The notes under the pieces were generated by a model. The model was not told the DNA's origin. It searched no databases and was given only the letters and a program-made list of their open reading frames with translations. Shown here piece by piece: positions 47,223-63,774 of a stretch of 64,000 nt of DNA (its first letter is position 1; every line of letters begins with the position of its first letter). The stretch comes from an uncultured Prevotellaceae bacterium (GTDB lineage Bacteria; Bacteroidota; Bacteroidia; Bacteroidales; Bacteroidaceae). The position numbers and the translations under genes were made by a program. The DNA lies in NCBI GenBank assembly GCA_949295905.1, contig CASFNA010000010.1, forward strand, positions 79,481 through 143,480. The letters run 5' to 3'.

Positions 47223-47513
47223 ATGGTAGATTTTAAGAATTTCTCGGCTATCCTTTCCTGCCTTGACGATTATATGGTTGACAAGGGCAAGAAGGAAATT
47301 GACGACATGGAAGCCAACATGGAGTTGGCCCGTGCCGGTTTGTTGAATGATTCCCAGCCCAGCCCGGGTTCTCCTCTGAGGGATTTGCTCATGAAGATGA
47401 GAGATGCCAACCTCTTGCCGCAAAACATACGCCAGACGTATGGCATATGGAAGATTAAGCTGTCGAAGACGATGGCCAAATTCCCGCAAATAAATCAGTT
47501 CCAGTATTGCTGA
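47223..47513 (+). CDS. Small protein of unknown function
   Basis: A 96-residue soluble protein, helix-rich, beginning MVDFKNFSAILSCLDDYMVD with an acidic middle (KKEIDDMEANMELARAG) and ending KFPQINQFQYC. I do not recognise its family. A consensus promoter 31 bases upstream and a stem-loop after the stop argue that it is expressed. It stands alone between cdaA and the OmpA-family gene. Confidence 0.6.
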   Translation: MVDFKNFSAILSCLDDYMVDKGKKEIDDMEANMELARAGLLNDSQPSPGSPLRDLLMKMRDANLLPQNIRQTYGIWKIKLSKTMAKFPQINQFQYC

Positions 47514-47536
47514 ACGACGGAAGATGCGGCCAAGCT

Positions 47537-47572
47537 TCCAATGCGCCCCGACTTTGATTGGAGCGCATTGGA
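47537..47572 (+). terminator. Stem-loop after the 96-residue gene
   Basis: TCCAATGCGC pairs perfectly with GCGCATTGGA around a 16-base loop, without a T tract, so it may be a weak terminator or an mRNA-stabilising hairpin. Confidence 0.5.
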
Positions 47573-47661
47573 TTGCGTTTGGACGTAAGCGAATACATGC
47601 GCGGCGTGGTTAATTTAAGTTAATGCCTTTCAACGTTGGCGCGGATTGCACGTCTTATATG

Positions 47662-47669
47662 TAAATTTG
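47662..47669 (+). promoter_or_regulatory. -7 box for the OmpA-family gene
   Basis: TAAATTTG, 35 bases before ATG 47705. It lies inside the longer open frame from 47636 and so supports the later start. Confidence 0.5.
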
Positions 47670-47704
47670 CGACAAATTACCAATCAAACGTAAATATTTA
47701 TAGT

Positions 47705-48586
47705 ATGAAAAAGAATGTTTTGGCCCTCTCGCTCATTGCGGGATGCCTCTTGGCAAGCAGCTGTGTAAGCAAGAAACAGCTTGAGAACTGCCAACTGGAG
47801 AACAAGGAACTGACAAGCAAATACCAAGACACGCAGGACAAGCTGTCTGATACCAACGCGAAACTCGCGGCAAGCAACGTCCGCGTAGCCAGCCTCGAAG
47901 AGCAGCTCGAACAGTCGAAGAGCACGCTCGAGTCACTCCAAAGCTCGCTCGACAAGAGCCTCACGGCCAGCAACCAGACTACGGTGAACATATCGAAGCT
48001 GGTAGACCAAATCAACGAGTCAAACCAGTACATACGCCACTTGGTCGAGGTGAAGAGCAAGAGCGACTCGCTCAACATGATACTTACCAACAACCTGACA
48101 CGCTCCTTGAGCAAGGAAGAACTGAAGGAGGTTGACGTGCAGGTGCTCAAGGGCGTGGTTTACATCTCGCTGGCGGACAATATGCTATACAAGAGCGGCA
48201 GCTATGAAATCAACGAACGAGCCGCCGAGACGCTCAGCAAAATCGCGAAAATCATCAAGGACTACAAGGATTACGACGTGCTCATCGAGGGTAACACCGA
48301 CAATGTGCCAGTCAACACCGCTTCAGCGTCGATGAAGAACATCCGTAACAACTGGGACTTGTCTTGCCTCCGTGCGTCAAGCGTGGTGCAGGCGCTTATC
48401 AACCAGTACGGCGTTGAGCCGAAGAGGCTCACAGCCGGAGGCCGCGGCGAGTTCAATCCCGTCACATCCAACGACACTGCCGTCGGCAAGCAGCGCAACC
48501 GCCGCACGCAAATCATCATCACTCCGAAGCTCGACCAGTTCATGGACCTTATCGACAAGGCTCCCGAGAGTGCTGACGCGGAATAA
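47705..48586 (+). CDS. OmpA-family peptidoglycan-binding lipoprotein with coiled coil
   Basis: A 293-residue envelope protein. The start at 47705 gives a signal peptide with lipobox (LLASSC, cysteine near residue 20). A long coiled coil follows (about 25-130, rich in Q, E, K and L, e.g. KKQLENCQLENKELTSKY). The C-terminal OmpA domain (about 165-285) has VLIEGNTDNVPV, RASSVVQALINQYGVEPKRL, GRGEFNPV and NRRTQIII, matching the peptidoglycan-binding helix and its conserved aspartate and arginine. It probably links outer membrane to cell wall. The upstream frame from 47636 is not used because it spans the promoter. Confidence 0.92.
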   Translation: MKKNVLALSLIAGCLLASSCVSKKQLENCQLENKELTSKYQDTQDKLSDTNAKLAASNVRVASLEEQLEQSKSTLESLQSSLDKSLTASNQTTVNISKLVDQINESNQYIRHLVEVKSKSDSLNMILTNNLTRSLSKEELKEVDVQVLKGVVYISLADNMLYKSGSYEINERAAETLSKIAKIIKDYKDYDVLIEGNTDNVPVNTASASMKNIRNNWDLSCLRASSVVQALINQYGVEPKRLTAGGRGEFNPVTSNDTAVGKQRNRRTQIIITPKLDQFMDLIDKAPESADAE

Positions 48587-48620
48587 TGTTTCGATAGAAT
48601 AGAAATTCTTATTTGAGATA

Positions 48621-48656
48621 AAGCCGTCTGCTGAAAACAGCAGGCGGCTTTTTGTT
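48621..48656 (+). terminator. Terminator after the OmpA-family gene
   Basis: AAGCCGTCTGCTG pairs with CAGCAGGCGGCTT (one wobble) around AAAA, followed by TTTGTTTTTT. Confidence 0.9.
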
Positions 48657-48749
48657 TTTTATCCGTTTCTTGTCCTTTTTCCAATCGTTGGTGGTGACGT
48701 ATATGTTCTTTTATTCGTCAATATTGTTCTAAATATCCGATTTAACATT

Positions 48750-48757
48750 TAGCTTTG
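48750..48757 (+). promoter_or_regulatory. -7 box at the start of the accessory block
   Basis: TAGCTTTG, 39 bases before the FtsZ-like gene. A TTG at 48724 is a poor -33. Sequence turns AT-rich from here. Confidence 0.5.
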
Positions 48758-48796
48758 CACCCTTCTTCGTATTAGTAAGTAACTAATTCTTTATTT

Positions 48797-49183
48797 ATGG
48801 GAACAATAAAAGATTTTATTAAGAGGATTGCCGAGGGGAAAAGAATCCTGTCGCTTGACGTGAAAGACATTGAAAGTTTGTATATGGAAAGGCGCGAACC
48901 TGTGGTGCAGATAGGTCACGGCGTGGGTTTCAGGCGGTTGGAGGATGCTGTGATGGAATCCTTAAATTCGCCAGATGAAATCTGTTTAAGTCACTGTCAC
49001 GGTTTCGTTTTTTGCATTTTCATAGATTTAAACGCACCCCATCCGCTTCAAGTGAGTGAATTGGAACAGTTGAATTGGCTTTTGGAAGATTGGCCGTCTG
49101 ACATTTTGCGCAATGTGAAATGGGGCATTTACGTTGACGATAGCCTTGGCGACAGTGTGGAGGTTGCCATTGTTGTAGGATGA
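48797..49183 (+). CDS. FtsZ C-terminal-domain-like protein without a GTPase domain
   Basis: A 128-residue protein that I read as the second half of an FtsZ/tubulin fold standing alone. SLDVKDIESL (S19-L28) matches the FtsZ T7 loop NLDFADV, keeping both aspartates (D21, D24) that complete the active site of the neighbouring subunit. VVQIGHGVG then matches the MGxGxASG segment and AVMESLNSP the AAxxALNSP helix. The C-terminal GIYVDDSLGDSVEVAIVVG matches the FtsZ strand pattern GxxIDxSLxDxVxVTVIATG. The N-terminal GTP-binding half with its GGGTG motif is absent. A filament-binding inhibitor or cap of cell division is an inference. It pairs with the next gene (13-base gap). Confidence 0.6.
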   Translation: MGTIKDFIKRIAEGKRILSLDVKDIESLYMERREPVVQIGHGVGFRRLEDAVMESLNSPDEICLSHCHGFVFCIFIDLNAPHPLQVSELEQLNWLLEDWPSDILRNVKWGIYVDDSLGDSVEVAIVVG

Positions 49184-49196
49184 AATATGTGGAATT

Positions 49197-49946
49197 ATGA
49201 AGTTTGAAGAATTTAAGAAACTGGCCGAAAATCCTCAACCTTATGTAGGGGACGTGTTTTATCGTCTTGACGTTTTTAATATGTCAGGACGTTATATCAA
49301 GGAAGTTTGTAAATATCCAGTGTTTGAGGTGTGGCTTTCCAATTCGAGTTTTTATCATTCATTGTCAGAAGCGGAAGCGGTTTTGGGACGCATTGTGAAT
49401 GGGAAACATTCGGATGGAATTTATTGTGCGTATGTTTACAAACTCCCGTTTGGTAAAAACGTTTCGTACGGACAGTTTGCCGAGGCGTTCGCTTACGATT
49501 GTGGCGGGCAACTTGTGGATAGGTCGTATTGTTCAAATCTTGATGAAGACTACGACAAGGAACATTCCGTATTCCGTGGGCGGACGGGTGATGCCATACG
49601 GTTTGATGAGGAAAATTTTGTTGAAGTGTTTGATGCTTCTTGTTTGAAAGTGCGTCTTGCCATTGTTTTGCATAAAGTACCGTCTGTTGAAATATGCTGG
49701 AAGCGTTATCTGAAGATGAAGGAACGTGTTGAAACAGATTGGAAAATGCCTTATGACGGAATGGCTGGACATTTGGATTTTACGGACGACTCGTATGTCG
49801 TGATTGATTGTGAGGAACATGAAAAAGATTACATTGAATGTCATTCTCATGCCAATTCGATATATATGTTCAAACCTCGCTTTCAAATTCCGCATGAATT
49901 AAAAGGGCCTCTTCTGGAAGATTATCGTGCGAATATGGAAAAATGA
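49197..49946 (+). CDS. Unrecognised protein, partner of the FtsZ-like gene
   Basis: A 249-residue, acidic, soluble protein without signal peptide, helix or known motif. It has aromatic-rich stretches (YVGDVFYRLDVFNMSGRYIKEV, VLHKVPSVEICWKRYLKMKE) and a histidine/cysteine-containing C-terminal part (VIDCEEHEKDYIECHSHANS). It follows the FtsZ-like gene by 13 bases and is surely co-transcribed with it. Its role may be linked to that protein (cofactor, immunity or effector), but nothing in the sequence says which. Confidence 0.6.
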   Translation: MKFEEFKKLAENPQPYVGDVFYRLDVFNMSGRYIKEVCKYPVFEVWLSNSSFYHSLSEAEAVLGRIVNGKHSDGIYCAYVYKLPFGKNVSYGQFAEAFAYDCGGQLVDRSYCSNLDEDYDKEHSVFRGRTGDAIRFDEENFVEVFDASCLKVRLAIVLHKVPSVEICWKRYLKMKERVETDWKMPYDGMAGHLDFTDDSYVVIDCEEHEKDYIECHSHANSIYMFKPRFQIPHELKGPLLEDYRANMEK

Positions 49947-49970
49947 TGAGTAAAGTGAAAGAAAATCAAC

Positions 49971-49978
49971 TATATTTG
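49971..49978 (+). promoter_or_regulatory. -7 box for the nuclease-like gene
   Basis: TATATTTG, 36 bases before ATG 50014, supporting that ATG rather than the later GTG as the original start. Confidence 0.6.
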
Positions 49979-50013
49979 TAGTCAATATGTTTAATTAAAA
50001 GCGTAATGTTCTT

Positions 50014-50897
50014 ATGGGAATAAGTAGTATTTCAAAGTTGCGGAGTTATTTTGATAAGTTGGATGTGAATGCGTCTTTGTTTATCGCACTAGAGAAAGAC
50101 CCTGCTTGGTGGCGAAAATTGAGAGAAGATGGGACATTTATATAAATGTAAGAAAAGACAATTATATAAGTGTTTATTACAGAGGAGCCTCGATTATGAA
50201 GTTGAGTTATGACAACGGAAAGTTTAAGGCTGGAATCCATAATAACTATTTAGGTGTGGATAAGGAGGTCGCATCAGAGTTAGGCTTACATTATGGAAAC
50301 GAAGATGTTTCTCCTGAAAGAATCGTGTCAATGCTTGAAACGATAAAATATAGGGTTCGTCAGAATAAAAAGAACAAAGGACTACCAGAGGCGGAGAATG
50401 GTGATGAGGAAAAAGTCAGCGAAAAATTTGTGCAAAGCGAGGTGTATAAGAACGGCTCTTATTTGGATACCGAGTTTGCGATAACATTGGATGACGAACC
50501 TACGATACGTATAGACCTTGTTAGGGTGGACGATTGTGGAAAAATTCAATTTGTTGAATTGAAAAGGATTCAAGACCTGCGTTTAGTAAATGAGGAAATC
50601 TTGACGCAAATGCGTAACTACAAAAGCTTTTTAGAAAAGGTTGATGTAAAGGAATTTGTTGATTATTATAATAAAGTATTGGCAATAATGAGGAAAATTA
50701 AAATATTGCCGGATAAAGTTTTATGTGATAAAATCAGTGACGTGAATAATTACGTAGAACTAATGATGACAAACTATAAGAAAAAGGGCAAGAGCCATGG
50801 GCGTTTGGACCGACTTAATAACATTAGACGTTCATTTGAAGAAAATGAAATACATTCAAATATTGATAGTGTAATTTCTGATTATAAAAAATGGTGA
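50014..50897 (+). pseudogene. PD-(D/E)XK-type nuclease-like gene, frameshifted near its start
   Basis: The 43-codon frame from ATG 50014 (SKLRSYFDKLD, then LREDGTFI) ends at 50145. A second frame continues with YINVRKDNYISVYYRGASI and runs 250 residues more to 50897. The break lies in a TA-repeat (50139-50144); one more TA would join the frames. The long part has RIDLV and then IQFVELKRI about 20 residues later, an aspartate and ExK spacing typical of PD-(D/E)XK nucleases, preceded by LDTEFAI. A shorter protein could start at GTG 50106. Probable function is DNA cleavage, inferred from the fold motif. Lysine-rich and AT-rich, unlike core genes. Confidence 0.62.
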
Positions 50898-51352: not shown

Positions 51353-51610
51353 TTACTTTGGGTACTGCTTACCTTTGGAAGAGTTCGCTCTACTATTCAT
51401 CGGCTGCAAATTGTTCAAATGGTCAGTACCACCAAGTGCTTGGGGTTTGGAATGGTCTACATTCCACCCCATTGGACTTGTCTTTCCATAAGAGTAACGA
51501 TACATTTCGTTTCCGTATTTGTCCTGTCGGTACAAATCAGGATTTTTACCCCTTATAGTCTGACCTTTATCCCAAATTTGGTCAAGCCTTTCTTCAGAAT
51601 AATTAGCCAT
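51353..51610 (-). CDS. Small HNH endonuclease-like protein
   Basis: An 85-residue protein whose second half is a compact HNH motif: WNVDHSKPQALGGTDHLNNLQPMNSRANSSKG, read in parts as the metal-binding DH, the central N and the final histidine position replaced by an N-rich helix. The first half (ERLDQIWDKGQTIRGKNPDLYRQDKYGNEMYR) is the usual lead-in of stand-alone HNH proteins of the GxxW/colicin-like group. It could be a phage or toxin-type nuclease. No immunity gene is evident beside it. Its own terminator follows. Confidence 0.75.
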   Translation of the reverse strand: MANYSEERLDQIWDKGQTIRGKNPDLYRQDKYGNEMYRYSYGKTSPMGWNVDHSKPQALGGTDHLNNLQPMNSRANSSKGKQYPK

Positions 51611-58707: not shown

Positions 58708-61700
58708 ATGGCTGATAGAATTCAACATCGCAGGGATACAAAAGCCCGATGGGCTGAATACAACCCTATACTCTTAGAGGGTGAAGTGGGTTATGTGACC
58801 GATAATCCTAACCAATACAAGATTGGTGACGGAGTTCATGCGTGGAATGATTTGCCGTTCAGAGGTTTTGACGGAACAGTGACACAAGAAACAGGTAATG
58901 CTACAGATGCAGTTATGTCGCAAAAGGCTGTAACGGAAGCATTGGAAGCTGTTATAGGCAAGGTTGACCTTCTTGACCTTATGGCTAACAAGACACCAGA
59001 TGAAATGGGTTTGTCACCAACCGCTGGTCATTCGAGATATGAAGTATATTATATCTTTAGTGATACAATAAATGCGAATGTTGGTACATTGGACGTATTT
59101 TCTGATAATATGTTACATGTGTTAACGACTGTATTCACCACGCATTTTCTGTTGGATGATGGCAACATTTCCTCAACACATGTTGATGATAAGATATTCA
59201 CTTACTACAGAAGCTGGAACTACAATGCCCCCAATCTTGACACTGAAAAAAACACTTGGACAAAGTGGAAGGAATATAATGTAAACATAGTACATCAGAA
59301 AGGTGACAGTCTTACAGATGTCATGTCGCAAGCTGCTGTAACTGCGGAATTAAGCGGAATAGAAGCAAAAGTCGGATATGTTACATGCACCACAGGAGCA
59401 TCCGATTCCGCTAAAACGGTTTCGCTTTCTGGTTTCGCCCTTACGACAGGCATCCGCCTTGTCGTGAAGATGAGTTATGCGAACACGGCAGCATCGGCTA
59501 CGCTGAACGTGAACAATACAGGTGCGAAAACGCTGTATTATAACGGCAATCCGGCAACGGCGGACAACACTTGGGAAGACGGCGAGACGCTGGACGTGTA
59601 CTATGACGGCACGAACTATCAGGCAAGCAATGTCCTTGGCGGTTCGGGAAGCGGCGGCAACATGATACTGGAATGGGACACGGATGCCGCGACCACGCGC
59701 TTGCAGGTGAAGCAGAGCCAGCGCAAGGCAGGAGTTATCGTTTCTTATAACAATCCAATCATGGGATGGGTGAACGAACAGTATGTCGGGACGCTGTTCA
59801 CGGATGTAGAATGGGTAAAAGATGAAAACTGGGACAAAACTGTAACAAGCAAACAGATCTCTACATTAACAAGAACGGCATCCCTGATAGGGGATTACCT
59901 TGTCAATTCGTTAACAGGAGAACTCACATCCAATGGAGGTTGGAAGTCTTTTAAGGCGGAAGTTTCATGTTATTCAAAAATACATAGTTATGTAGGGTCT
60001 TCCCCTATTGGTATTGTTGGTATGGCTTTTTATGATGATGAAGACACGTTCATCAGCGGTTATCAGGCGATCAGCGCATCGTATTATGAAGAAGTGGAGC
60101 TTGCAATCCCAGAAAACGCAGTTACAGCCCGTTGGAGTTGGCTTGTAGACGGCAATCAAAACCAGCCGTTCCCCTATAACGGGGATTATTCTGTCATACC
60201 ACAACCTGCTTTAGACGCAGAGAACATAGCTTATGGAAACGGGACACAAGCCGATTTCAATGGGAAAGTGGAGGAAAGATTAGAAGAATTGTCAGATTTA
60301 AGCGGGACAATAGAATTGACTGACATCAACGGCGTAAGCAATCATGATACGCCGAACTTGCTTAATCCAGAAGGTTTCCAAAAAACATTCAATGACGGAA
60401 TCCAGGACTTCACTCCTCCGAACGAAGGTTACGAAATGTCAAACCGTATTGAATGTACAGCTGGAGATTGGTTTACCCGTACAGGTACGGCTACGGGTAT
60501 GGTGGTAGTTACTGATGCTGACGACACAAACGGACAAAGGTTATTCCAAGAGAACGGAAGTACATTGGGTAATACGTTCCAGGTGCCCGATGATATGGCA
60601 TGGGTAAGATATATCCGAATGGCAGTAGAGGTGGCAGGAGTGGAAGAAGGAACTGTTGCCGTATGTCGAGGCAAACAAGCATATCTTGGCGATGATAAAG
60701 GAGATTTTGTTACAATTGATTCCTTAAGGGTAACAAAACGTAATTTAGCAAAAGACGTTTCTTATCTGAAATCGCCAGACGGGAAGTATTGGGAACTATA
60801 CGTAGACGAAAGTCATACCTTGAAAATAAAAGAAGTTGACCCGGATGTAATACCAGACAGCGAATTGCCAGCATCATGGGACACGTTGAATCTAACGGGA
60901 ACTTTTGAGAACTCTTTTGACAGGGCTTGCATTATGAGTAACAAGTTCCTGATAGACATGAAATACAGTGGCGCTGTTAAAGTTTATGAGATTCCAACAG
61001 CGCTGATAAACGAATGGTGTAATTTTGAACATTTCTACACAGATGAAGGTAATGAGCGTTATATTGTGGCAACAATGGAAAATGTCGCCGGCAATAACAC
61101 ATCTGGCATCACTATATTTGACGAGAAATTTAACATAATTGAATCAGGAATAAAAATGGTATCTACATTGAATGGGTTTCTTGATTTACATGACTTTGTG
61201 TATATAGCTGATGACCATCTTATACTATTTGATTCCATGAGCTATGATGTTGATATTTCTGGAGTAGGTGAAAAGAACATTCGTGGTGCCGTAATCCAGG
61301 AGATAAAAAAGGAAAACGGCGTGTGGAAGCAGATAGGAGGCATGGCACTAAACGATTATCCTCAACTATGCACGGACGCATTCGGAGATTTGGGAGATGT
61401 AGTTGACGCACACCCGAATACGCTTGGACTTGATTATGACGGGAATATAATAATAAATTTGAGAAATTGGGATACGTGGATTAAAATTCGCCGCGTAGAC
61501 AATGGTGACGGAACTGTCACAATCGGCTCACAAAACAAGGACTACAATGAAGCCATAATCGGCAGAGTCGGAGGAAGGCATAATTCGGCGTATATTGATG
61601 ACAAGCGCGTGTTGGAGCAAGGATTTACATTCACAGACACACCTGCGGAATATACAGAAGTATCGTCTGACGAATGGGAAGACTGGATGTTTTTCCACGC

Positions 61701-62208
61701 ACATGATGTGAAATATTGGGGGATGAAAGACATAGAGGGGACTAAATACCCAACTTACACACTGTTCGACAACAATTATTGCACAGAAAACAGGAATGTA
61801 AACAACGCATACAACATTCTAAACAAACGTAATAATGTAATTATTAATCCGAAAGGGAATGTGTCAGCGAACTATAATAACACGTATGATTCAGATGAAA
61901 ATTATGCAAAATACACGTGCTCAAGAGTTGTTCAATTGTCAATAGACTGGGAAAACCATCTCATTAAGGACTATAGAATTTATATAGTTCCGAAAATGTA
62001 TGCAAGAGAACAAAGCGGAGCAACAATGTACAAAGAGGGAGTAATAAGCATTGATTATTCATACAATGGCGGATTTGGTCTGTGGGATTTCACCACAGAG
62101 GACACACAGGTTAGCGGACATATTTACTCAGGTGGGAAACGCCTGTTCTGGGGGCAGTTCGCAACCCATCGCAAGTGTTACAGGACGAATACTTATAACT
62201 TAAGATAA
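58708..62208 (+). CDS. Large phage tail fibre: Mtd-type N-terminus, arylsulfotransferase-like C-terminal propeller
   Basis: A 1166-residue protein. Residues 1-60 are the Mtd/fibre N-terminal type: RIQHRRDTKARWAEYNPILL, GEVGYVTDNPNQYKIGDGVHAW and NDLPF. Repeats MSQKAVTEAL (about 73) and MSQAAVTAEL (about 207) follow, as in many Bacteroidales fibres. The C-terminal third (about 790-1166) reads as an arylsulfotransferase-like beta-propeller: LHDFVYIADDHLILFD (H828), DAHPNTLGLDYDGNIIINLRN (H902), FFHAHDVKYWG (H997, H999) and SRVVQLSIDW. Such histidines are catalytic in ASST enzymes. Whether sulfate is transferred or the fold only binds host glycan is unknown. Confidence 0.78.
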   Translation: MADRIQHRRDTKARWAEYNPILLEGEVGYVTDNPNQYKIGDGVHAWNDLPFRGFDGTVTQETGNATDAVMSQKAVTEALEAVIGKVDLLDLMANKTPDEMGLSPTAGHSRYEVYYIFSDTINANVGTLDVFSDNMLHVLTTVFTTHFLLDDGNISSTHVDDKIFTYYRSWNYNAPNLDTEKNTWTKWKEYNVNIVHQKGDSLTDVMSQAAVTAELSGIEAKVGYVTCTTGASDSAKTVSLSGFALTTGIRLVVKMSYANTAASATLNVNNTGAKTLYYNGNPATADNTWEDGETLDVYYDGTNYQASNVLGGSGSGGNMILEWDTDAATTRLQVKQSQRKAGVIVSYNNPIMGWVNEQYVGTLFTDVEWVKDENWDKTVTSKQISTLTRTASLIGDYLVNSLTGELTSNGGWKSFKAEVSCYSKIHSYVGSSPIGIVGMAFYDDEDTFISGYQAISASYYEEVELAIPENAVTARWSWLVDGNQNQPFPYNGDYSVIPQPALDAENIAYGNGTQADFNGKVEERLEELSDLSGTIELTDINGVSNHDTPNLLNPEGFQKTFNDGIQDFTPPNEGYEMSNRIECTAGDWFTRTGTATGMVVVTDADDTNGQRLFQENGSTLGNTFQVPDDMAWVRYIRMAVEVAGVEEGTVAVCRGKQAYLGDDKGDFVTIDSLRVTKRNLAKDVSYLKSPDGKYWELYVDESHTLKIKEVDPDVIPDSELPASWDTLNLTGTFENSFDRACIMSNKFLIDMKYSGAVKVYEIPTALINEWCNFEHFYTDEGNERYIVATMENVAGNNTSGITIFDEKFNIIESGIKMVSTLNGFLDLHDFVYIADDHLILFDSMSYDVDISGVGEKNIRGAVIQEIKKENGVWKQIGGMALNDYPQLCTDAFGDLGDVVDAHPNTLGLDYDGNIIINLRNWDTWIKIRRVDNGDGTVTIGSQNKDYNEAIIGRVGGRHNSAYIDDKRVLEQGFTFTDTPAEYTEVSSDEWEDWMFFHAHDVKYWGMKDIEGTKYPTYTLFDNNYCTENRNVNNAYNILNKRNNVIINPKGNVSANYNNTYDSDENYAKYTCSRVVQLSIDWENHLIKDYRIYIVPKMYAREQSGATMYKEGVISIDYSYNGGFGLWDFTTEDTQVSGHIYSGGKRLFWGQFATHRKCYRTNTYNLR

Positions 62209-62709: not shown

Positions 62710-63774
62710 TTATATTGCAGCCTTTTTCGGTCGGCTCGTCACCTCATTGTAAGTTATCCTGCGTCTGCAATTTGCGGTGAAATAGTGGAAACGCTCACTT
62801 TCGTCCATGTCATTGGTGTTGTAACGGAAACTAAACTCATCAAAATACCTTTGCATGTGCTTGCGGCTTATCCAACTGTAAGTACCGTTTATGGCACGTT
62901 TGCAATAGTTGCTCCAAAACGCTTCAATGGTATTGGTATATGCGCCACCGTCAACGTAGATACCGTGGCCGTGGTCAACGATATGGTGGTTATACAGCTT
63001 ACTGATTGTCTTGTAGCCCTGCCACTCATCGGAGTACACCTTGGCGGTACGCTTAACCTTACGCAATACTGGCACTGTAAGCTGCTTGTAGGTGGTATTC
63101 TTGACCACTTTACAAACCACGCAGCCCCCACGTTCGAGAATGCCCATGACGGGTGTCTTGTCCTTAAAGCTCCTGACCTGCGAGTTCTTGACTTTTTTAT
63201 TCTTGTGGCGGTTCTTGTTCTTGCCGCCCACGAAAGTTTCATCCAGCTCAACCTCACCGCTGAACTTGTCCGTTGTCTCCATGCCGAAGTTTTCACGGAT
63301 GCGCTGTAACATGAACCACGCAGTCTTTTGCGTCACGCCTATGTCCTTGGCCAGTTGCACGGAGGATATGCCTTTCTTGTGTGACGTGACGAGGAAGATA
63401 GCCATGAACCACTGGTAGAGCGAGGTCTTGCTGCCCTCAAACATTGTACCGATACGGACATTGAAGTTCTTGCCCGTGTTCTTGCAACGGTACATGCCAT
63501 CGCCACGGCGATAAACCTTTGAAGTTGGGTCGTATGGAGATACTGGCTCACCGTCAGGCCAAAGCTGGCGTTCAAGGTACACTATGCAGCTTTTCTCATC
63601 GGGAAACGCTGCATGGAAGTCCGCCATTGACTTGAATTTGCCGATATTGCTGCCTACTTTCCTTTTCATAAGCCCCTTGTTTTTGTTGTTCTTTAGGGCT
63701 ATTAACTTTGGCGACAATTTTTCTTTGGGCAGAAAACGCCTGAAAACTGTGGATTTTCGGGGTGGCGCAAGCAT
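62710..63774 (-). CDS. IS1595-type (ISXO2-like) transposase
   Basis: A 354-residue DDE transposase. A zinc-ribbon-like N-terminal segment (DGMYRCKNTGKNFNVRIGTMFEGS) is followed by WFMAIFLVTSHKKGISSVQLAKDIG. The catalytic acidic residues follow in ELDETFVGGK (first), VYSDEWQGYK (second) and NTIEAFWSNYCKRAINGTY (third), with the family pattern intact. The start is either the listed one or MKRKVGSNIGKF at 63669. No clear terminal inverted repeats or target duplication were found nearby, so the boundaries of the element are not called. Confidence 0.88.
   Translation of the reverse strand: MLAPPRKSTVFRRFLPKEKLSPKLIALKNNKNKGLMKRKVGSNIGKFKSMADFHAAFPDEKSCIVYLERQLWPDGEPVSPYDPTSKVYRRGDGMYRCKNTGKNFNVRIGTMFEGSKTSLYQWFMAIFLVTSHKKGISSVQLAKDIGVTQKTAWFMLQRIRENFGMETTDKFSGEVELDETFVGGKNKNRHKNKKVKNSQVRSFKDKTPVMGILERGGCVVCKVVKNTTYKQLTVPVLRKVKRTAKVYSDEWQGYKTISKLYNHHIVDHGHGIYVDGGAYTNTIEAFWSNYCKRAINGTYSWISRKHMQRYFDEFSFRYNTNDMDESERFHYFTANCRRRITYNEVTSRPKKAAI

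What the first reader, a model, noticed from the sequence alone, without database searches (positions are those of the whole stretch)
48797..49183. Stand-alone C-terminal half of an FtsZ-like fold in an accessory block
The 128-residue protein keeps the FtsZ T7-loop pattern SLDVKD (D21, D24), the segment VVQIGHGVG, the helix AVMESLNSP and the last strand pattern GIYVDDSLGDSVEVAIVVG, but has no GTP-binding half. A free C-terminal half carrying the T7 loop could dock on an FtsZ subunit's nucleotide face and poison or cap filaments. It lies at the start of the AT-rich block, co-transcribed with an unknown 249-residue gene.
Basis: partly seen in the sequence, partly recalled or inferred. Interest (0 to 1): 0.75.

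Follow-up and report, generated by a model that had tools for sequence, protein, structure and literature searches.

The report
Free-standing FtsZ C-terminal domain protein
A small gene makes only the back half of FtsZ, the protein that builds the bacterial division ring; relatives of it sit in accessory, partly defence-like gene islands of related bacteria, so it may be a home-made brake on cell division.

Summary
Observation confirmed: the 128-aa protein is a lone FtsZ C-terminal domain (end of H7, T7 loop, H8-H10, S7-S10) without GTPase half or tail. Same-genus FtsZs match it at E about 1e-9. A three-row profile hits FtsZ in the PDB at 3.9e-5; P0001 alone only at 0.038.

It is not unique. 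I found 22 such genes in 20 Bacteroidaceae genomes, some fused (guanylate kinase; probable UDG domain). A profile made only from FtsZ recovers all 19 members tested; the best of 969 shuffles/reversals scores E 1.2. Three of four pairs tested show purifying selection. Neighbours recur: the 249-aa family, WYL regulators, AAA+ ATPases (four IetA-like). Five of 19 loci have AAA+ within 1.5 kb, 0.22 expected (post hoc). No AAA+ was found in the window's locus.

The two T7 aspartates rank joint third of 44 FtsZ-conserved columns in retention, which fits docking on FtsZ; but the two nearest relatives lost one. No binding test was possible.

The parts
48797..49183 (+). stand-alone FtsZ C-terminal-domain gene, 128 aa
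48818..48871 (+). codons 8-25: half of helix H7 and the T7-loop equivalent (..RILSLDVKDI), D21 and D24 kept, Asn position = Ser19
   Evidence: alignments
48827..49108 (+). core codons 11-104, synonymous sites saturated against G065 although both flanks are 83-89% identical DNA: two long-diverged allele types
48750..48757 (+). TAGCTTTG, fits the Bacteroidetes -7 promoter consensus TAnnTTTG (consensus recalled); kept in G065 and G273
   Evidence: sequences
48620..48656 (+). terminator-like hairpin and T run after the ompA-like gene, so the FtsZ-domain gene probably starts its own transcript
   Evidence: read from the sequence; not scanned
49197..49946 (+). partner gene, 249 aa, family without a Pfam hit; 87% identical in G065; relatives also beside FtsZ-domain genes in G195, G409, G491
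50014..50897 (+). third gene, homologue of the G065 294-aa gene (84.6% over 253 aa) and of a G504 297-aa gene; reading frame appears broken near 50118-50140 relative to G065 (described only)
   Evidence: G065 homologue hits PADLOC PDC-S11 weakly, E 2.4e-4
47705..48586 (+). OmpA-like lipoprotein gene that marks the left edge of the island; 91-96% identical protein in G004, G053, G065, G273

Best explanation
The gene encodes the C-terminal (T7-loop) domain of FtsZ alone, one member of a family of FtsZ-C-domain proteins carried in accessory islands of Bacteroidaceae (shown by sequence). Most likely it works on FtsZ itself (inferred): lacking GTPase half and tail, it can occupy the nucleotide-bearing face of an FtsZ subunit as the next subunit's C-domain would, without offering a new growing end, and so caps or slows filaments and holds back division, probably as the output or a regulated part of a conflict/defence locus whose partner genes (here the 249-aa protein, elsewhere AAA+ ATPases) control it.
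For: Homology to FtsZ from end of H7 to S10. T7 aspartates kept in 13 of 19 members each (the second is Glu in 5 more), joint third of 44 FtsZ-conserved columns after the W and G of the WG pair near the last strands; mean retention 0.30; the H10 Glu is kept in 11 of 19 while the FtsZ GG and SPLL motifs are mostly lost. H10 and strand S9 are subunit-contact elements (MciZ, passage of PMC8456036), and the synergy (T7) loop inserts in the neighbour's pocket (same paper; PMC13423816). Purifying selection in 3 of 4 pairs. AAA+ genes within 1.5 kb in 5 of 19 loci against 0.22 expected; four match PADLOC IetA at 5e-24 to 2e-33. Cell-division-related effector domains, with rare FtsZ/tubulin ones, are reported in conflict systems (PMC7159879 section 17).
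Against: No binding, toxicity or structure data. The full NxDxxD motif is in 6 of 19 members only; the nearest relatives G065/G273 lack the first Asp. D24 could be kept only as a helix N-cap. Identity to host FtsZ2/FtsZ1 is just 28/23%. The window locus itself has no AAA+ or WYL gene among 10 ORFs scanned, so the defence link rests on other loci. The AAA+ test was made after the neighbours had been seen.
Confidence: 0.42

Rival explanations
1. Exapted scaffold: the FtsZ C-domain was reused as an adaptor or substrate for partner proteins (249-aa family, AAA+ ATPases, fused enzymes) and no longer touches FtsZ.
For: Fusions to guanylate kinase (G438, PF00625 E 1.4e-51) and a probable UDG domain (G006, just below the Pfam cut-off); recurrent partner genes; very low identity between members (12-32% to the first row); T7 Asn lost in 13 of 19.
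Against: The two T7 aspartates are kept far above the mean of FtsZ-conserved positions.
Confidence: 0.28
2. Decoy or sensor: it presents the FtsZ C-domain that phage and host inhibitors bind, soaking them up or alerting a defence partner.
For: Gp0.4 (predicted), SulA and MciZ act at the C-terminal region/synergy loop of FtsZ, and CapRel senses a Gp0.4-FtsZ complex (PMC13423816, abstract and passages). Two strongly diverged allele types at one locus and island neighbours of defence type.
Against: A decoy should look like the host FtsZ; identity to it is 23-28% and exposed motifs are not preserved.
Confidence: 0.18
3. Decaying fragment of a second FtsZ with no function.
For: Many genomes of the genus carry a second full-length FtsZ; one broken relative exists (G438:C84:25643, stops inside); the G065/G273 pair has few changes (12 nonsynonymous, 7 synonymous; omega 0.465), too few to show constraint.
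Against: Intact frames in 22 genes; dN/dS with Fisher 2e-39 (G409/G491), 1.5e-10 (G036/G063), 3.8e-7 (window/G065); conserved promoter and gene order; the three-member clade is not nested in either host FtsZ clade.
Confidence: 0.05

Closest known systems
FtsZ C-terminal domain (Pfam PF12327) of Bacteroidaceae FtsZ
   Same: Homologous from the end of H7 to S10, incl. T7 aspartates in the window protein.
   Different: No PF00091 GTPase half, no linker or C-terminal peptide, below the Pfam cut-off.
FtsZl1/FtsZl2 families (Makarova and Koonin 2010, PMC2875224, passages seen)
   Same: Diverged FtsZ-superfamily proteins.
   Different: Opposite architecture: they keep the N-terminal FtsZ-like domain; FtsZl1's C-terminal domain shows no similarity to FtsZ C-domains.
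Proteinaceous FtsZ assembly inhibitors (SulA, MciZ, Gp0.4)
   Same: Proposed outcome: blocks the subunit interface.
   Different: They bind the C-domain; this IS a C-domain and would bind the N-domain face. No sequence relation was tested.
IetAS-type AAA+ defence loci and vWA/AAA+ conflict systems (PADLOC IetA; Kaur et al. 2020, PMC7159879, passages and section 17)
   Same: IetA-like AAA+ beside the FtsZ-domain gene in G195, G067, G413, G400.
   Different: Not at the window locus; the second IetAS gene (a protease, recalled) was not looked for.

Membership tests
FtsZ | N-terminal GTPase with GGGTGTG signature | tested here: not met
   absent from the 128-aa ORF; PF00091 in the own genome only at C10:38772 and C7:155505
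FtsZ | homologous C-terminal domain | tested here: met
FtsZ | T7 synergy loop GxxNxD | tested here: not met
   Ser at the Asn position, both Asp present; motif definition from PMC8456036
FtsZ | linker and conserved C-terminal peptide | tested here: not met
   protein ends with the last strand
FtsZ | GTP-dependent filament formation | not testable with these tools
   needs biochemistry
Pfam FtsZ_C PF12327 | score above the gathering cut-off | tested here: not met
   16.9 against 27 bits
FtsZ assembly inhibitor | binds FtsZ and blocks polymerisation | not testable with these tools
   structure prediction switched off; no wet assay
IetAS-like defence locus | IetA-type AAA+ gene in the locus | tested here: not met
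   window locus: none among 10 ORFs. Met at G195, G067, G413, G400
IetAS-like defence locus | second gene IetS | not tested
   not searched

The most novel reading that the evidence does not exclude
Bacteroidaceae carry a family of FtsZ C-domain-only proteins that act as division-arrest effectors of AAA+-controlled (IetA-like) defence or conflict loci: the cell poisons its division ring with a copy of FtsZ's own half, released or remodelled by the AAA+ partner.
Probability: 0.27. Interest if true: 0.86.

Novelty: new variant of a known kind. Interest (0 to 1): 0.72.

Why it matters
FtsZ is the target of many natural and drug inhibitors, which bind whole FtsZ. A natural, widespread stand-alone C-terminal domain would be the reverse: a piece of FtsZ used against or instead of FtsZ. 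It would show that the two FtsZ halves can live apart in nature, give a new handle on filament ends, and, if the AAA+ link holds, tie division arrest to defence islands in gut and rumen Bacteroidaceae.

Tried and rejected
Viral contigs: no relative of P0001 or P0002. Phages: no hit for P0002 or the G533 member. Plasmids: P0001 and the G504 member hit only OY726001.1 at E 0.02 and 0.004, which is a full-length 435-aa FtsZ beside an FtsA-like gene; the G434 member hits nothing. The first family-level search with the narrow profile at E 1e-13 (301 genomes) listed one short frame besides the window's (G500, 231 aa, not followed); the broad profiles were needed. G003 (353 aa, nucleoside deoxyribosyltransferase-like, E 0.024) was left out as doubtful. 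G284 (311 aa) is an FtsZ1 cut by a contig end. The weakest counted member, the second G195 gene, scores 8.6e-4 with the pure FtsZ profile and 0.43 with FtsZ1 alone. Paper searches with stand-alone/FtsZ_C terms returned mainly unrelated papers.

Considered and rejected: recent fragment of host FtsZ (tree) and chance similarity.

Full report
Observation. The ORF at 48797-49183 (+) encodes 128 aa with all the segments quoted. It aligns with same-genus FtsZ from the last part of helix H7 through the T7 loop to the last strand. In 200 same-genus genomes the best full-length FtsZ matches reach E 1.2e-9 (193 of 200 genomes match at 0.001 or better; the call lists part of the matches). blastp gives 53.5 bits for P0001 and 52.8 for its G065 relative, against at most 26.6 for 400 shuffled queries. 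Against the PDB the three-row profile A2 lists 46 sequences at E up to 1; 44 are FtsZ and two are ribosomal eL32, best FtsZ 3.9e-5. P0001 alone is weaker: 14 of 17 listed are FtsZ, best 0.038, three are eL32. Pfam FtsZ_C stays below its cut-off.

Relatives at the same locus. Two genomes carry the gene at the same place, between an OmpA-like lipoprotein gene and the 249-aa gene: G065 (42% identity) and G273 (40%, gene runs off its contig at codon 126). The 249-aa gene is 87% identical in G065; in G273 only its last 39 residues are on another contig end. The genome-contig scan names G065 and G273 contigs as uncultured Prevotella MAGs. In the relative G004 the OmpA-like gene is followed instead, after about 0.5 kb, by what I recognise from memory as the start of a 16S rRNA gene, at the contig end.

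Two allele types. Window and G065 DNA align at 83% (47331-48824) and 89% (49112-50680) on both sides, but nothing aligns between. In codons 11-104 synonymous sites are saturated, whereas the 249-aa gene has dS 0.27, dN 0.07. The whole-gene comparison still shows constraint (dN 0.55, dS 2.0, Fisher 3.8e-7). I infer replacement by a long-diverged allele or very old alleles kept at one locus.

The wider family. A profile of FtsZ and stand-alone C-domains, run on 85 same-genus genomes at least 85% complete with the full match list shown, gave short or fused C-domain frames in 7 of 85: window, G065, G036, G006, G063, G067, G071 (G003 at E 0.024 left out). On 99 genomes of the order, 97 of them from other families, none of the 97 showed a short frame at E 0.001; more diverged ones could be missed. 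With G273 and two genes in G195 and two in G521 this makes 22 genes in 20 genomes of 7 genera. Of these 22, 19 were aligned (G273, G517 and G491, near copies of aligned members, were not). The set was built iteratively, so I checked it with a profile made only from 46 FtsZ1/FtsZ2 C-halves: all 19 match at 2.1e-14 to 8.6e-4, the best of 969 shuffles and reversals at 1.2. The 19-row profile finds FtsZ in the PDB at 1.4e-8. On a tree the 19 fall on one side of a branch, with weak support 67/87, so one or several origins remain open.

Architectures. G438: C-domain fused to guanylate kinase (PF00625, 1.4e-51). G006: probable UDG domain (24.1 against cut-off 24.3) plus C-domain. G409 and G491: 281-282 aa with an N-terminal part without Pfam hit (G409 tested). 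G195: 219 aa with a diverged N-part lacking GGGTGTG. The rest are 127-161 aa. G434/G517 frames end at a stop inside the profile match and were read only up to it.

Constraint and the T7 loop. Among 44 columns conserved in at least 90% of 46 FtsZs, mean retention in the 19 members is 0.30. Highest are W (0.89) and G (0.84), then the two T7 aspartates (0.68 each, with Glu in 5 more at the second), then a T7 Leu and the H10 Glu (0.58). The GG (0.11, 0.21), Met (0) and SPLL (0.05-0.21) positions are largely lost. The Asn of the T7 motif is in 6 of 19. This ranking was made post hoc and the rows are related. dN/dS: G409/G491 0.08/1.0, G036/G063 0.39/2.1, window/G065 0.55/2.0, all significant; G434/G517 too similar to say (p 0.5); G065/G273 12 and 7 changes, not tested.

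Neighbourhood. Within 7 kb, blastp clusters and profiles show the 249-aa family at window, G065, G195 (two), G409 (two), G491; a WYL-type regulator cluster at G195, G400, G409, G504, G533; IetA-like AAA+ at G195, G067, G400, G413; an MBL nuclease at G065, G273, G409, G504; a GmrSD/DUF262-type cluster at G067, G400, G434 (identities, not every member scanned). A fifth AAA+ (G521) is of another type with weak PADLOC hits. AAA+ density in the 18 genomes tested is 210 in 61.3 Mb; 5 of 19 loci have one within 1.5 kb, expected 0.22, Poisson 3.7e-6 (within 4 kb: 0.55, 2.6e-4). These neighbours were seen before the test, and islands may be AAA+-rich in general, so the value overstates the case. The window locus lacks such a gene among 10 scanned ORFs. 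In 10 of 398 same-genus genomes the 249-family occurs; 4 of those 10 (window, G065, G273, G195) are known to carry the FtsZ-domain gene nearby.

Mechanism. Shown: homology, domain limits, family, constraint, neighbours. Inferred: binding to FtsZ. [quoted passage not shown] A free C-domain keeping the T7 acids could sit on that face and cap the filament; without linker and tail it would not be anchored. Alternatives (scaffold, decoy/sensor) are set out above; the CapRel work (PMC13423816, abstract and passages) makes a sensor role thinkable, but low identity to host FtsZ speaks against mimicry.

Known or new. The FtsZl families keep the other half (PMC2875224, passages). Conflict systems with rare FtsZ/tubulin domains are reported (PMC7159879, section 17). 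Searches, of which I saw listings only apart from the papers named, showed no paper on stand-alone FtsZ C-domains; subscription journals are mostly not held.

Noticed in passing
own genome G000:C7:155505-155978 (L002) and many same-genus genomes: A second full-length FtsZ (FtsZ2) with intact GTPase and T7 motifs and a long linker, outside the ftsA-ftsZ locus, forms its own clade (27 distinct sequences in the tree). Its role is unknown to me.
   Followed up: partly
window 50014-50140: Third gene of the block appears frame-broken near its start relative to the 294-aa G065 homologue; sequencing error or decay not distinguished.
   Followed up: no
window 51353-51610 (-): 85-aa HNH-endonuclease-like ORF, just below Pfam cut-offs.
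   Followed up: no
window 58708-62208 and 62710-63774: 1166-aa protein with a phage Mtd_N domain, then an IS1595-type transposase at the contig end: prophage or element remnants in the same AT-rich block.
   Followed up: partly
G438:C84 (L171:6257-7240): FtsZ C-domain fused to a complete guanylate kinase domain, linking the module to guanine nucleotides; a second, broken copy lies 1.4 kb away.
   Followed up: partly
G409 and G491 (L178, L179): A tyrosine-recombinase gene lies beside the FtsZ-domain island (Pfam confirmed for L179), suggesting mobility.
   Followed up: partly
G500:C15:18589-18936: FtsZ C-domain match in a 231-aa open frame, not examined.
   Followed up: no
plasmid record OY726001.1: PLSDB plasmid of Phocaeicola massiliensis carries a chromosomal-looking cell-division cluster with ftsA and ftsZ; probably a mislabelled chromosome piece.
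   Followed up: partly
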